Part shown: one piece after another, positions 4,387-53,298 of the stretch | Layout of the letters: each line of letters opens with the position of its first letter | Numbering within the stretch: the first letter of the stretch is position 1 | NCBI RefSeq assembly: GCF_000701685.1 | Contig: NZ_JNJO01000005.1 | Location: 1 to 64,000, forward strand | Length of the DNA: 64,000 nt | DNA from: Gemella sanguinis ATCC 700632 | GTDB taxonomy: Bacteria; Bacillota; Bacilli; Staphylococcales; Gemellaceae | Reading direction: 5' to 3' | Notes under the pieces: model-generated | The model's database searches: none | What the model saw: the letters and a program-made list of their open reading frames with translations, nothing else | Told to the model about the DNA's origin: nothing | Position numbers and translations under genes: made by a program

Positions 4387-4665
4387 AAAAACGCCCTTAA
4401 ACAATAAATTAATATTGTCTAAGGACGTGCGTTTCATACGTGGTACCACCTTATTTTATGGAAAATCTAAAATTGTGAATTGAATTTTTTAGTTTTCCAC
4501 CTCATTAAAATTTTAACGCGTTTAATGCGTAATTATTTTACCGAATATTATTCAGCTCAATAATTAAAACTCAAAGACCATTTTCAAAAAAACTCATTAA
4601 TCTCTTTTCAGCTACCGAGATTCTCTGTTGTAAATCCTTTTTTTTACTCATCTTTTCAATGTTAT
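4387..4665 (-). promoter_or_regulatory. T-box riboswitch 2 (gene-proximal, methionine specifier)
   Basis: Read leftward this shows T-box landmarks: an AGAGA segment, the apical GGTAGCTGAAAAGA segment, an ATG triplet in GAAAATGGTC at the expected specifier position, and the antiterminator core AAGGTGGTACCACG (about 4440-4453), whose TGGT can pair with an ACCA tRNA end. A terminator hairpin with a T tail follows (4392-4427). The ATG specifier fits tRNA-Met and the downstream metE. Boundaries are approximate. Confidence 0.88.
4392..4427 (-). terminator. T-box 2 terminator hairpin
   Basis: Leftward, CGTCCTTAGACAAT pairs with ATTGTTTAAGGGCG (two G-T pairs) and is followed by TTTTT. It is the regulated terminator in front of metE, ending about 54 bp before the start codon. 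Confidence 0.85.
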
Positions 4666-4711
4666 ATTATATTAATTTGTAAAAATAATTTGTACTCAGT
4701 CTTAAATACGA

Positions 4712-4953
4712 CAAAAGGGTAGTAACACAAGGGACGAAATGACCGTGTTACCACCCAATTTTATAATCTTAAAATAAACTTTTAATCTTACCTCAATGAT
4801 TATTAACGGTAATCAACCGGAACTAACTCATTAATAGTCATTAGTTCAGCTCTGTGACCATTTACAATACACCCAAATCCTTTTTTTCACCAACCAAAAG
4901 GTCTCTAATAATTAAGTAATATTGCTCTTCACTTCTTCGCTTTTAAAACTGTT
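4712..4953 (-). promoter_or_regulatory. T-box riboswitch 1 (promoter-proximal, methionine specifier)
   Basis: A second, complete T-box lies directly upstream of the first. Leftward it has an AGAGA segment, a GGTTGGTGAAAA apical segment, ATG within AAATGGTC as likely specifier, the antiterminator core GGGTGGTAACACGG (about 4743-4756) and a terminator at 4717-4756. TGGT again fits a tRNA with discriminator A, as tRNA-Met has. Both leaders are in one transcript, so readthrough of metE needs both switches to be open. Confidence 0.86.
4717..4756 (-). terminator. T-box 1 terminator hairpin
   Basis: GGGTGGTAACAC pairs with GTGTTACTACCC (one G-T pair), followed leftward by only four T residues. The short T tract suggests a leakier terminator than that of T-box 2. 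Confidence 0.75.
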
Positions 4954-30788: not shown

Positions 30789-30817
30789 TTGACAATAAAA
30801 AAAACTGTTGTTATAAT
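30789..30817 (+). promoter_or_regulatory. Promoter of the tryptophan-type ABC importer leader
   Basis: Consensus TTGACA (30789-30794), 17 bp, TATAAT (30812-30817). Transcription from here produces a leader of about 325 bases before the first transporter gene. Confidence 0.87.
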
Positions 30818-30853
30818 GTAGTCAAGAATTAAAAGTAAGGAAAAAAAAGATTA

Positions 30854-30910
30854 ATGAAACTGTATCGTGTTGACATATTACAACTAAATATTCGTTGGCA
30901 AAGCCACTAG
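30854..30910 (+). CDS. Putative 18-residue leader peptide with a Trp codon
   Basis: ATG-AAA-CTG opens a short frame encoding MKLYRVDILQLNIRWQSH, stop TAG at 30908-30910. AAGGA (30837-30841) is a ribosome site, with a somewhat long 12-bp spacing. The single Trp codon (30896-30898) is three sense codons from the end. Its place, between promoter and a set of mutually exclusive hairpins, fits a leader peptide whose translation senses charged tRNA-Trp. Length is too short for coding statistics, so it rests on architecture. Confidence 0.6.
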   Translation: MKLYRVDILQLNIRWQSH

Positions 30911-31036
30911 ATACAGAGTCGATCTTGTTTCTTTATTATAAAGCATAGATACGACTCTCAGTGAGAAGTTAGTATCTATGTGGATTATTTGTGATGATAT
31001 AATTAAGACCACATAGAGTTATCTAGGTGGTTTTTT
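30911..31036 (+). promoter_or_regulatory. Putative ribosome-mediated attenuator (alternative hairpins)
   Basis: Four pairings exclude one another in order. Segment 0 AGAGTCG (30915-30921) pairs with CGACTCT (30952-30958). CATAGATAC (30944-30952) pairs with GTATCTATG (30972-30980). TCTATGTGG (30975-30983) pairs with CCACATAGA (31009-31017). The last arm also forms the terminator with 31022-31031. A ribosome finishing at the TAG would cover segment 0 and favour termination; one stalled at the Trp codon would leave it free and favour the antiterminator. No T-box core is present. Confidence 0.65.
31008..31036 (+). terminator. Attenuator terminator
   Basis: ACCACATAGA (31008-31017), GTTA loop, TCTAGGTGGT (31022-31031) with one mismatch, then six T residues. 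Confidence 0.8.
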
Positions 31037-31060
31037 GTTTTATATTTTATAGGATGTAAA

Positions 31061-31090
31061 GACCACTAGATAGTAACTAGTGGTCTTTTT
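31061..31090 (+). terminator. Second leader terminator
   Basis: GACCACTAG (31061-31069) and CTAGTGGTC (31077-31085) pair perfectly, followed by TTTTT. It lies between the attenuator and the substrate-binding gene. Confidence 0.78.
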
Positions 31091-31150: not shown

Positions 31151-32155
31151 ATGAAATTAAATAAAATTTTTATAGCATTCGCATTATTATTAGTTTGTGT
31201 TTTAGGTTATGGAGTATATTCAAGCAATAAAGGAGAAGATACTAATAAAACACAAAATAAAGAGGTAAAAGTAGGAGTTCTTCAATTATTAAGTCATCCA
31301 GCATTAGATCAGATTTATAAAGGTTTAGAGGATGGACTTGCTAAAGAAGGATATAAAGTAGGAGAAAACTTAAAAATAGATCTTCAAAATGCTCAAGGTG
31401 ACCAAAGTAACCTAGCGAGTATGGGGCAAAAGTTAGTTACTGATAACAATGATATATTAGTAGGTATAACAACACCAGCAACTTTATCATTATCAAACGC
31501 AACAAAAGATAAACCTATTATAATGGCAGGTATTACTTATCCAGTTGAGGCAGGACTTATAAAATCAGAAGATAAACCTGGAAATAATATTACTGGTGTA
31601 AGTGATAGAACTCCAATAAAACAACAATTAGAAATTATGAAAAAAGTATTACCTAAAATGAAAAAAGTGGGTATCTTATATACAGCAAGTGAGGATAATT
31701 CAGTAAAACAAGCACAAGAAGCTGAAAAACTAGCTAAAGAATTGGGATTAGAAGTTAAAGTATCTAGTATTGCAAATACAAATGATATTCAACAAGTAAC
31801 AGAAAGCCTTGCTTCAGAAACAGATGCGATTTTCGTACCAATCGATAATACAATAGCAAGTGCAATGTCAACAGTTGTAAAAGTTACTGATGCTAAAAAA
31901 ATTCCAGTATTCCCTTCAGCAGATACAATGGTAGCAGATGGTGGGGTATTAGGAATTGGTGTTGACCAATATCAAATAGGTGTTGAAACAGCAAAAGTTG
32001 TAGCAAAAGTATTAAAAGGTGAAGATACTAAAAATATGCCAATAGTACTTGCTAATGAGGGTGTTATCTACTTAAACGAAGCTAAAGCAAAACAATTAGG
32101 AATAGAAATTCCAAATGAAGTTAAAGAAAAAGCAAAAGTTGTAGATAAAAAATAG
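31151..32155 (+). CDS. ABC transporter substrate-binding protein, TrpX-like (PF04392 type)
   Basis: A 334-residue exported binding protein. After a signal/anchor helix (residues ~5-23) comes a two-lobed domain: VKVGVLQLLSHPALDQIYKG, GITTPATLSL and IFVPIDNTIASAM are typical of the ABC_sub_bind family, which includes tryptophan/tyrosine-type importers of streptococci. The Cys at residue 16 is preceded by Val, so there is no good lipobox; it may stay anchored by its N-terminal helix. The upstream leader with its Trp codon supports tryptophan or a related compound as substrate (inference). AAGGAGATAGG precedes the ATG. Confidence 0.88.
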   Translation: MKLNKIFIAFALLLVCVLGYGVYSSNKGEDTNKTQNKEVKVGVLQLLSHPALDQIYKGLEDGLAKEGYKVGENLKIDLQNAQGDQSNLASMGQKLVTDNNDILVGITTPATLSLSNATKDKPIIMAGITYPVEAGLIKSEDKPGNNITGVSDRTPIKQQLEIMKKVLPKMKKVGILYTASEDNSVKQAQEAEKLAKELGLEVKVSSIANTNDIQQVTESLASETDAIFVPIDNTIASAMSTVVKVTDAKKIPVFPSADTMVADGGVLGIGVDQYQIGVETAKVVAKVLKGEDTKNMPIVLANEGVIYLNEAKAKQLGIEIPNEVKEKAKVVDKK

Positions 32156-32271: not shown

Positions 32272-33147
32272 ATGGATTTAATTATTTCAGCGATTTCTCA
32301 AGGTATGCTTTGGGGAATATTGTCGCTTGGATTATTTATAAGTTTTAGAGTTTTAAATATAGCTGATATGACAACTGAAGGAGCGTACCCTTTAGGGGCA
32401 GCAGTTTGTGTTATTTGTATTCATAATGGTATTAATCCGATAATAGCTACGTTGATTTCAATATTAGCAGGTATGATTGCAGGATTAGTAACAGGTTTTT
32501 TAATTACAGTGTGTAAAATACCAAGTTTATTAGCAGGGATTTTGACAATGACTGCTTTACTATCAGTAAATTTAAGAATAATGGGTAGACCAAATTTAAG
32601 TTTAATAAATAAAGAGACTATCTTTAGTAAATTACAGAATTTAAATCTACCAACTCATTATGATACAGTTCTTGTAGGATTTATTCTATCATGTCTTATA
32701 ATTGGGGCAATGTCATTATTTTTTGCAACAGAATTAGGACAAAGTTTAATAGCTACAGGTGATAATGAGAAAATGGCAACAGCATTAGGAATATCTACAA
32801 AAACAATGACTATTTTAGGGCTTATGCTTGCAAATGGAATTATTTCTCTAGCTGGAGCAATTCTTGCACAAAACAATGGATATTCTGATGTAAATAGTGG
32901 TATTGGAGTTATTGTAGTTGCTCTTGCAGCGATTATAATTGGTGAAGTTGTGTTTAAGGATGTTAGCTTTACAACGCGATTAGCGTGTGTAATATTTGGT
33001 GCAATTATATATAGATTATTACTTGTAGGGGTATTAAAATTAAATATTATAGGAGCTAATGATTTTAAATTAGTTTCTGCCTTAGTTATTGCACTATTCC
33101 TTACATTACCACAGTTAAAATTAAAAGCTAAGAGAAAGGATGTATAG
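32272..33147 (+). CDS. ABC transporter permease, TrpY-like
   Basis: A 291-residue membrane protein with about eight helices, of the branched-chain/ribose permease type (PF02653). LSLGLFISFRVLNIADMTTE and NGIISLAGAILAQNNGYSDV are family segments; the latter resembles the ATPase-contact loop. It lies 116 bp after the binding-protein gene and 2 bp before the ATPase gene. AGAGGTAGAGG precedes the ATG. Confidence 0.9.
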   Translation: MDLIISAISQGMLWGILSLGLFISFRVLNIADMTTEGAYPLGAAVCVICIHNGINPIIATLISILAGMIAGLVTGFLITVCKIPSLLAGILTMTALLSVNLRIMGRPNLSLINKETIFSKLQNLNLPTHYDTVLVGFILSCLIIGAMSLFFATELGQSLIATGDNEKMATALGISTKTMTILGLMLANGIISLAGAILAQNNGYSDVNSGIGVIVVALAAIIIGEVVFKDVSFTTRLACVIFGAIIYRLLLVGVLKLNIIGANDFKLVSALVIALFLTLPQLKLKAKRKDV

Positions 33148-33149
33148 AG

Positions 33150-33923
33150 ATGTCATTTATAAAAATAAATAAAATAGATAAAACGTTCTTTCCTGGTACA
33201 ATAAGAGAGCAACATGCTCTAAAAAATATAAGTTTAGAAATAAAAGATGGAGACTTTATTACTATTTTAGGTGGGAATGGAGCAGGGAAATCAACATTTT
33301 TAAATGCTATTGCAGGTTCTTTCTCAGTCGACTCTGGTGAAATTCTTATCGAAGGTAAGGATGTAAGTAATATTGTTGAACATAAAAGGGCAGCATTTAT
33401 TAGTAGAGTATTCCAAAATCCTTTAGATGGAACAGCTCCTCGTATGACGGTTGCTCAAAATATGTCATTGGCTCTTAGACGTGGTAAAACCAGAGGTTTT
33501 AAAATAGGAACTACTAAAGAAGATAGAAAGTTATTTAAAGAATTATTATCAACATTAGACTTAGGTCTAGAAGATAGATTAGATAGTGAAATGGGATTAT
33601 TATCTGGTGGACAACGTCAAGCTATAGCACTTCTAATGGCGACAATGACAACGCCAAAACTTTTGCTTCTAGATGAGCATACGGCTGCATTAGATCCAAA
33701 AACTCAGAAGAAAATAATGGAATTAACTAGAGAAAAGATTGAAGAAAAAAATTTAACAGCTCTTATGATTACTCATAATATTCAAGATGCTGTAAAATAT
33801 GGAAATAGAATAATAGTACTTCATAGAGGAGAGTTAGTTCGAGACATAGGGAAAGAAGAAAAAGAAAAACTAGATGCAAAAGCACTATACGAATTATTAT
33901 ATAACTTAGAAGAAAATGAATAA
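33150..33923 (+). CDS. ABC transporter ATP-binding protein, TrpZ-like
   Basis: A 257-residue ATPase that powers the importer. Walker A is LGGNGAGKSTFL, the signature is LLSGGQRQAIAL, Walker B is LLLLDEHTAALD (the residue after DE is His) and the switch His lies in MITHNIQDA. The gene starts 2 bp after the permease stop, so the two are coupled. Confidence 0.93.
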   Translation: MSFIKINKIDKTFFPGTIREQHALKNISLEIKDGDFITILGGNGAGKSTFLNAIAGSFSVDSGEILIEGKDVSNIVEHKRAAFISRVFQNPLDGTAPRMTVAQNMSLALRRGKTRGFKIGTTKEDRKLFKELLSTLDLGLEDRLDSEMGLLSGGQRQAIALLMATMTTPKLLLLDEHTAALDPKTQKKIMELTREKIEEKNLTALMITHNIQDAVKYGNRIIVLHRGELVRDIGKEEKEKLDAKALYELLYNLEENE

Positions 33924-53054: not shown

Positions 53055-53298
53055 ATAATAAAAACCAATACTCTTATAAGTACTAGGTGAAATAATCAAA
53101 GAGAGTGCAGTAGGCTGAGAATGCATATTATGTAATCTAGGAAAATGGTTTGAGTGGTTAATGAAGTAAACAATGATTGTAAACTTTATTCGGGTATCCA
53201 CGTTATAGGATAAGCTATGTTAGTAGTATAAGTAAAAAAGTAAGGTGGTACCGCGTAAAACGCCCTTATTCTGTATAGCAGAGTAAGGGTGTTTTTTT
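53055..53298 (+). promoter_or_regulatory. T-box riboswitch (methionine specifier) of metNI
   Basis: The leader shows an AGAGAG segment, an ATG triplet in GGAAAATGGTTTGAGTGG as probable specifier, and the antiterminator core AAGGTGGTACCGCG (53242-53255), followed by a terminator (53261-53298). TGGT fits the ACCA end of tRNA-Met. Uncharged tRNA-Met should let transcription continue into the methionine importer genes. Confidence 0.9.
53261..53298 (+). terminator. T-box terminator of metNI
   Basis: CGCCCTTATTCTG pairs with CAGAGTAAGGGTG (wobble and one mismatch), then seven T residues. Confidence 0.9.

What the first reader, a model, noticed from the sequence alone, without database searches (positions are those of the whole stretch)
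30789..31036. Candidate leader-peptide attenuator with a Trp codon ahead of a TrpX-type ABC importer
Seen: consensus promoter, ribosome site, an 18-codon ORF with one Trp codon (30896-30898) and stop at 30908-30910, then four mutually exclusive pairings (30915-30921 with 30952-30958; 30944-30952 with 30972-30980; 30975-30983 with 31009-31017; 31008-31017 with 31022-31031 plus T6). Model: a ribosome at the stop covers the first segment, so the second hairpin and terminator form; a ribosome stalled at the Trp codon leaves it free, shifting to the antiterminator. Distances fit a normal ribosome footprint. Importers of this kind in Firmicutes are usually under T-boxes, and I see no T-box core. A ribosome-driven switch here would be unusual.
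Basis: partly seen in the sequence, partly recalled or inferred. Interest (0 to 1): 0.8.

Follow-up and report, generated by a model that had tools for sequence, protein, structure and literature searches.

The report
Trp leader-peptide attenuator, widespread in Lactobacillales
Ahead of a tryptophan importer lies a tiny gene whose translating ribosome acts as the tryptophan sensor and decides whether the importer is transcribed; the same device, with its codons swapped for tyrosine, phenylalanine or histidine, sits ahead of matching genes across lactic-acid bacteria and explains an RNA family that had been listed as a riboswitch of unknown ligand.

Summary
Its proposed test passes: ORF, Trp codon and stems are conserved in all 13 Gemellaceae relatives with trpX. 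Bases 30942-31042 match Rfam RF04312, the orphan "trpB motif" riboswitch candidate (PMC11109978). All 20 RF04312 hits of at least 44 bits that I examined have a short ORF ending close by, which the Rfam model omits. Leader codons switch with the downstream gene: Trp before trpX/trpB; Tyr/Phe before aroE, a DAHP synthase and a separate importer clade; His before hisZ and an amino-acid permease. Segment 1:2 covaries strongly. I add two unreported pairings: the last leader codons (S0) with S3, and the terminator's 3' arm with a second terminator. The model occurs in 217 of 295 Lactobacillales genomes. Best reading: ribosome-mediated transcription attenuation in which a ribosome stalled at the regulatory codons gives readthrough. 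TnaC-like, riboswitch, T-box or TRAP mechanisms fit less well. Nothing was tested experimentally.

The parts
30789..30817 (+). Promoter: TTGACA (30789-30794), 17-nt spacer, TATAAT (30812-30817)
   Evidence: sequence; box retained in relatives
30854..30910 (+). Leader ORF MKLYRVDILQLNIRWQSH*, Trp codon 30896-30898, stop 30908-30910
   Evidence: C-terminus LN(I/T)RWQSH* in all 13 Gemellaceae trpX leaders
30904..30914 (+). Segment S0 (CCACTAGATAC): end of the ORF, can pair with S3 (11 bp, one bulge)
   Evidence: cognate S0:S3 pairing beats permuted partners, 0/3000 overall and 0/2000 within each group
30915..30921 (+). Segment S1 (AGAGTCG), pairs with 30952-30958
   Evidence: homologous helix 89.2% paired, 7 of 9 pairs with two-sided changes, against 33-49% when slid
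30944..30958 (+). Segment S2: 5' arm of hairpin 2:3 and partner of S1
30972..30983 (+). Segment S3: 3' arm of 2:3, 5' arm of antiterminator 3:4, partner of S0
31008..31017 (+). Segment S4: 5' arm of terminator 1, partner of S3
31022..31036 (+). Segment S5 and U-run: 3' arm of terminator 1; 31026-31035 can pair with S6
31058..31090 (+). Terminator 2: S6 (31061-31069) : S7 (31077-31085) plus T-run 31086-31090
   Evidence: a second terminator present in most trpX-type leaders
30942..31042 (+). Match to Rfam RF04312 (trpB motif), 56.4 bits, gathering 59
31151..32155 (+). trpX, Trp ABC importer substrate-binding protein
   Evidence: NCBIfam NF041285 456.5 bits, cut-off 390; PDB 3lft E 4.5e-82
32272..33147 (+). 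ABC importer permease
33150..33923 (+). ABC importer ATPase

Best explanation
A ribosome-mediated transcription attenuator for tryptophan. RNA polymerase starts at the promoter 30789-30817 and a ribosome translates the 18-codon leader. When charged tRNA-Trp is scarce, the ribosome stalls at the Trp codon; it covers S0 but leaves S1 free. S1 pairs with S2, S3 pairs with S4 (antiterminator), terminator 1 cannot form, S5 is free to pair with S6 so terminator 2 is disarmed too, and the trpX operon is transcribed. When Trp is plentiful the ribosome reaches the stop and covers S1; S2 pairs with S3, S4 with S5 and S6 with S7, and transcription stops. Without a ribosome, S0:S3 plus S1:S2 again leaves S4 for the terminator (predicted for most relatives, less clearly for Gemella). 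Shown by comparison: ORF, Trp codon, the pairings, codon-gene matching. Inferred: stalling, readthrough and sign of the response.
For: Conserved ORF and stems in 13 Gemellaceae. 1:2 covariation, 48 cells changed on both sides against 14.8 shuffled, 0/500; 2:3 and 4:5. Cognate S1:S2 duplexes -17.2 against -13.65 kcal/mol permuted, 0/5000. Codon content follows the gene: W leaders before trpX (101, plus L335 which the regex missed) or trpB (6); Tyr/Phe leaders before a COG2984 importer (20), aroE (11) or DAHP synthase (1); Tyr/Phe-led importers in the tree form one clade, 100/100. In one genome near-identical leaders differ by TAT TAT TAT against CAT CAT CAT, before an importer and an amino-acid permease. 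First regulatory codon to the invariant S1 G is 23-27 nt in 47/47, while stop to G varies from -3 to +13. Ribosome-mask folding: S3:S4 forms in 136/145 when masked at the first regulatory codon, 42/145 unmasked, 43/145 masked at the stop.
Against: No experiment. Gemella has a single Trp codon and a weak, distant Shine-Dalgarno in the window copy. S3:S4 shows little two-sided covariation. Over the whole leader the equilibrium fold of the window is the terminated one whether S1 is free or not, so the switch must be kinetic. Without a ribosome, 16 of 26 single-Trp leaders are predicted ON, so default OFF is not general. LN before the regulatory codon is kept in 82/144 leaders with varied Leu codons, hinting at some peptide-level role. 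Sequences are related, so counts are not independent.
Confidence: 0.88

Rival explanations
1. TnaC-like arrest: free L-Trp, sensed by the nascent peptide, holds the ribosome at the stop codon, covers S1 and so favours termination. The sign is the same as in the best explanation.
For: The C-terminus is conserved (RWQSH*, WQxWRR*) and Q follows W in 100/110 leaders; LN is kept in 82/144 with varied Leu codons. High Trp with the ribosome at the stop fits the wiring.
Against: Codons swap to Tyr, Phe or His with the gene while the RNA is kept, which would need a new ligand pocket each time. Spacing is set by the regulatory codon, not by the stop. N, H, K or R replaces Q in some leaders. C-terminal nucleotide conservation is explained by S0:S3.
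Confidence: 0.06
2. A metabolite riboswitch, as first proposed for the trpB motif: the RNA from S2 onward binds an amino acid directly.
For: Conserved two-hairpin motif, listed as a strong riboswitch candidate (PMC11109978).
Against: All 20 examined hits of at least 44 bits carry an abutting leader ORF; its codons, not a conserved aptamer core, track the gene. The same authors leave a classic attenuator open.
Confidence: 0.02
3. TRAP protein binding to the leader controls termination; the genome encodes a TrpBP-like protein beside hup and folE.
For: PF02081 hit of 27.1 bits, cut-off 21.3, at C5:104451-104636.
Against: No (G/U)AG array in the leader: longest run with 2-3 nt spacers is 1, and shuffled leaders reach as much or more.
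Confidence: 0.01
4. T-box riboswitch, as for trpX in Streptococcus suis.
For: trpX is T-box regulated in S. suis (PMC9382623) and T-boxes precede several streptococcal trpX loci.
Against: None in this leader, though 18 T-box matches occur elsewhere in the genome. In the trpX loci scanned, T-box and the motif never co-occur.
Confidence: 0.005

Closest known systems
trpB motif, Rfam RF04312 / SRC-39-1 (Narunsky et al. 2024, PMC11109978)
   Same: Same RNA: hairpin 2:3 and terminator 4:5 in the 5' UTR of trpB or an amino-acid ABC importer; the window scores 56.4 bits (gathering 59).
   Different: The published model starts at S2 and lacks the leader ORF, S0, S1 and terminator 2; it was classed as a riboswitch candidate with no ligand and no ORF reported.
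E. coli trp operon attenuator (trpL)
   Same: Leader peptide with Trp codons, ribosome position chooses terminator or antiterminator (general knowledge).
   Different: Different wiring: stalling leaves S1 free to pair with S2 (in E. coli it masks segment 1); an extra hairpin in the relay; single or spaced Trp codons; a second coupled terminator; Firmicutes.
Histidine leader peptides in Bacillus (PMC2965389) and in B. cereus group, Peptostreptococcaceae, Erysipelotrichales (PMC9413887)
   Same: Leader-peptide attenuators in Firmicutes with runs of His codons, including before hisZ.
   Different: Those papers describe His only; whether their RNA shares this fold was not tested here. PMC9413887 reports T-boxes, not attenuators, for Lactobacillales his genes.
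trpX T-box of Streptococcus suis (PMC9382623)
   Same: Same operon, same presumed physiological input (Trp-tRNA charging).
   Different: Senses tRNA directly by RNA; no ribosome. Here no T-box is present.
TnaC of E. coli (PMC8429421)
   Same: Trp-containing leader peptide governing a Trp-related operon.
   Different: TnaC senses free Trp and induces; here codons are exchangeable with the gene.

Membership tests
Ribosome-mediated (leader-peptide) transcription attenuator | Short translatable ORF with codons of the regulated amino acid, conserved | tested here: met
   13 Gemellaceae leaders; 145 unique leaders overall, 110 of the Trp type all with TGG at the regulatory position by definition of the class
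Ribosome-mediated (leader-peptide) transcription attenuator | Mutually exclusive terminator and antiterminator with covariation | tested here: met
   strong; 3:4 conserved but with little two-sided change
Ribosome-mediated (leader-peptide) transcription attenuator | Codon identity matches the gene function | tested here: met
   W: trpX, trpB; Tyr/Phe: aroE, DAHP synthase, importer clade; His: hisZ, amino-acid permease. One W leader precedes an oligopeptide-binding protein and two in Vagococcus-family genomes precede no nearby gene
Ribosome-mediated (leader-peptide) transcription attenuator | Ribosome stalls at the codon and readthrough rises on starvation | not testable with these tools
   needs reporter or ribosome profiling; footprint geometry fits
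RF04312 trpB motif | Covariance-model score at or above gathering | tested here: inconclusive
   window copy 56.4 bits against 59; two other copies in this genome score 68.6 and 68.1; aligned over the full model length
T-box | Rfam RF00230 match in the leader | tested here: not met
TRAP-regulated leader | Array of (G/U)AG repeats | tested here: not met
TnaC-type arrest peptide | Arrest by free Trp at the stop with required peptide residues | tested here: inconclusive
   spacing set by codon, not stop, and codon swaps speak against; arrest itself not testable
TrpX importer | NF041285 equivalog cut-off | tested here: met
   456.5 bits against 390

The most novel reading that the evidence does not exclude
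A modular domino attenuator: the ribosome's position at one codon is passed through a chain of eight alternately pairing segments (S0-S7) to two terminators in series, with a swappable codon cassette for Trp, Tyr, Phe or His, and serves as a general aromatic and His control system across Lactobacillales and Gemellaceae in place of T-boxes. In some streptococcal Tyr/Phe leaders the first hairpin seems to have lost its U-run, so only the relayed second terminator can act.
Probability: 0.6. Interest if true: 0.8.

Novelty: new variant of a known kind. Interest (0 to 1): 0.72.

Why it matters
It gives a specific, testable function to an orphan RNA family with more than 900 reported members, by adding the leader ORF and two segments that the published model leaves out. 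It shows leader-peptide attenuation for Trp, Tyr/Phe and His in a group where T-boxes are taken as the rule, found in 217 of 295 sampled Lactobacillales genomes. The codon cassette appears exchangeable in nature, which makes reprogramming by codon swap a direct test.

Tried and rejected
T-box in the leader: none. TRAP: a TrpBP-like gene exists but the leader has no (G/U)AG array. Exact Gemella-type peptide pattern RWQSH* over 399 Bacilli: apart from the window itself only scattered hits that I judged chance from their letters and did not follow up, so the peptide alone is a poor probe; RF04312 and model R1 worked. RF04312 hits under 44 bits are mixed: about a dozen I read lie in or after coding genes and lack such a leader, while real Tyr/Phe leaders also score only 30-40 bits. 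Of 80 loci of the scan for TGGCAANNYTGGCGTAGATA, 61 have an SD-ATG ORF and 19 do not, the latter nearly all from unrelated groups; that scan is circular for WQxWRR, so the argument rests on the Tyr/Phe and His classes found by structure. A leader unique to this window: rejected. S0:S5 pairing: weaker and not cognate within the Tyr/Phe or two-Trp groups, so S0:S3 is preferred. No paper was found that names these peptides.

Full report
CHECK. The downstream gene is trpX by a curated equivalog model (456.5 bits, cut-off 390), nearest solved relative 3lft, followed by permease and ATPase genes. Rfam finds no T-box in the leader. The window lies in a Gemella-like genome (two trpB leaders of the same kind, found by name, belong to Gemella haemolysans).

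CONSERVATION IN RELATIVES. trpX with this leader occurs in 13 Gemellaceae genomes, the window's included. The peptide start varies, the end LN(I/T)RWQSH* does not, and all stems are kept. One should not read too much into identity among close relatives, so I looked further out.

A KNOWN ORPHAN. A permissive Rfam scan aligns 30942-31042 over the full length of RF04312, "trpB ncRNA motif", at 56.4 bits, just under its gathering score of 59. The same genome has two further copies over the threshold, one ahead of trpB with leader MKQTTTLNSWQNWRR* and one ahead of an oligopeptide-binding protein with MKQNINIQSWQSWRR*. The founding paper (PMC11109978) lists the motif as a strong riboswitch candidate, more than 900 members in Firmicutes and Fusobacteria, ligand unknown; it says a protein factor or a classic attenuator cannot be ruled out, and reports no ORF for it. 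The published model starts at segment S2, so the ORF and S1 fall outside it.

THE LEADER ORF IS GENERAL. I read the flanks of the 20 hits of at least 44 bits found among 399 Bacilli genomes. All 20 have a short ORF that ends near the motif: WQxWRR* and variants, RWQSH*, RWQGQ*, RWQSRHRRVV*, YFSYFR* or an HHHH leader. Weak hits that lie in or after coding genes do not. A DNA scan of the collection of 84,980 species genomes for TGGCAANNYTGGCGTAGATA gave 97 stretches, of which I read the 80 listed: 61 carry an SD-ATG ORF; 55 of these are followed by trpX, 2 by trpB, and 4 run off the stretch. They are Enterococcus, Vagococcus, Streptococcus, Ruoffia, Gemella and others.

CODONS FOLLOW THE GENE. 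This is the strongest argument. Leaders ending YFSYFR* precede aroE (L279, L283 and others), a DAHP synthase (L359) and importers related to TrpX. On a tree of 109 importer proteins the Tyr/Phe-led ones form a single clade with 100/100 support. Trp leaders precede trpX (101, plus L335) or trpB (6) and, in this set, never aro genes. His leaders precede hisZ (L139) and a polar amino-acid ABC permease (L391). In Gemellaceae genome G012 two leaders read ...NNYYYSHS* and ...NRHHHSHS*, ahead of an importer and that permease, with the following RNA nearly the same: the codons and the gene changed together. The loci were taken from the best scores of model R1, and substrates of the Tyr/Phe importers are inferred from the codons alone.

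PAIRINGS. On an alignment of 47 diverse leaders (A2), helix 1:2 is 89.2% paired with 48 cells changed on both sides (14.8 expected by shuffling, 0/500; slid controls pair 33-49%). 2:3 and 4:5 are equally clear (92.8%, 55 two-sided cells). 3:4 is conserved (87.4% against 25-57% slid) but has little two-sided change. Alignment-free, cognate S1:S2 duplexes are stronger than permuted ones (-17.2 against -13.65, sd 0.25, 0/5000).

TWO ADDITIONS. First, the end of the coding region (S0; 30904-30914 in the window) is complementary to S3. Cognate S0:S3 pairing beats permuted partners overall (0/3000) and within each of the three groups (0/2000 each). S0:S3 can enclose S1:S2. This also offers a reason for fixed third codon positions in that stretch (CAA for all 100 Gln codons after the Trp). 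Second, most trpX-type and Tyr/Phe importer leaders have a second terminator, whose 5' arm can pair with the 3' arm and U-run of the first (cognate -9.84 against -7.20, sd 0.24, 0/5000). In the window this is 31026-31035 with 31058-31067. Antitermination at the first would then disarm the second.

LOGIC. The distance from the first regulatory codon to the invariant G of S1 is 23-27 nt in all 47 leaders of all four codon classes, while the stop lies anywhere from 3 nt after to 13 nt before that G. So the ruler is set by the codon. Folding 145 leaders up to S4 with the ribosome's footprint masked gives the antiterminator in 136 when stalled at the first regulatory codon, 42 with no ribosome and 43 at the stop. 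For the window, with S1 free the fold up to 31018 is 1:2 plus 3:4, and with S1 masked it is 2:3; over the full leader the terminated state is the equilibrium in both cases, so the choice must be made during transcription. In the single-Trp group, which includes Gemella, 16 of 26 are predicted ON without a ribosome, so default OFF is only safe to claim for the others.

BREADTH. Covariance model R1, which includes S0 and S1, finds matches in 217 of 295 Lactobacillales genomes and 64 of 74 genera (E up to 0.01; E-values are rough), and in 15 of 15 Gemellaceae.

ALTERNATIVES. TnaC-like sensing has the same sign and cannot be fully excluded; codon swapping and the codon-set ruler make it unlikely. 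A riboswitch would not need the ORF. TRAP: a TrpBP-like gene follows hup and folE, as in B. subtilis from general knowledge, but the leader has no binding array. T-box: absent here; of the trpX loci scanned none had both a T-box and this motif, and a T-box was reported absent for S. pyogenes (PMC9382623).

PRIOR ART. Leader peptides for His in Firmicutes are known (PMC2965389, PMC9413887). I found no paper describing Trp or Tyr/Phe leader-peptide attenuators in Lactobacillales, nor these peptides, within an open-access library that lacks most subscription papers.

VERDICT. Known kind (leader-peptide attenuation), new variant: new wiring, second terminator, swappable codons, and an explanation for RF04312. 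All of it is comparative; none of it is measured.

Noticed in passing
G000:C17:30852-31010 (L135) and G000:C21:13557-13732 (L136): Two further Trp attenuators in the same genome: one ahead of trpB, one ahead of an Opp4A-like oligopeptide-binding protein, suggesting peptide uptake is also under Trp control. No other same-strand ORF of 90 codons or more was seen downstream of trpB in two G. haemolysans loci of 6.5-8 kb.
   Followed up: partly
L137 and L138 (genomes G172, G205): Trp attenuators with terminator but no same-strand gene start found within 800 nt downstream; in G172 the next genes lie on the opposite strand. Orphan remnants or Trp-responsive small RNAs.
   Followed up: partly
L058, L064, L070, L078, L084, L086, about 100-150 nt before trpX: Streptococcal trpX loci, most with a T-box, keep a short ORF with SD, M..KRWRR.. 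(AAACGATGGCG), one Trp codon, between the T-box position and trpX; function unknown.
   Followed up: no
window 4418-4668 and 4727-4946, minus strand: Two adjacent T-box matches (91.4 and 101.1 bits), apparently a tandem T-box.
   Followed up: no
window 53059-53270, plus strand: A T-box match of 74.5 bits, below gathering.
   Followed up: no
L405 (G000:C5:104451-104636): A divergent TRAP-like (TrpBP) gene after hup and folE; its targets in this genome are unknown.
   Followed up: partly
leader peptides, residues just before the first regulatory codon: LN (often QLN) is kept in 82 of 144 leaders of both Trp and Tyr/Phe types with varied Leu codons, so possibly a peptide-level signal.
   Followed up: partly
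L257, L259, L262 (streptococcal Tyr/Phe importer leaders): Hairpin S4:S5 is not followed by a U-run; only the second, relayed terminator has one.
   Followed up: partly
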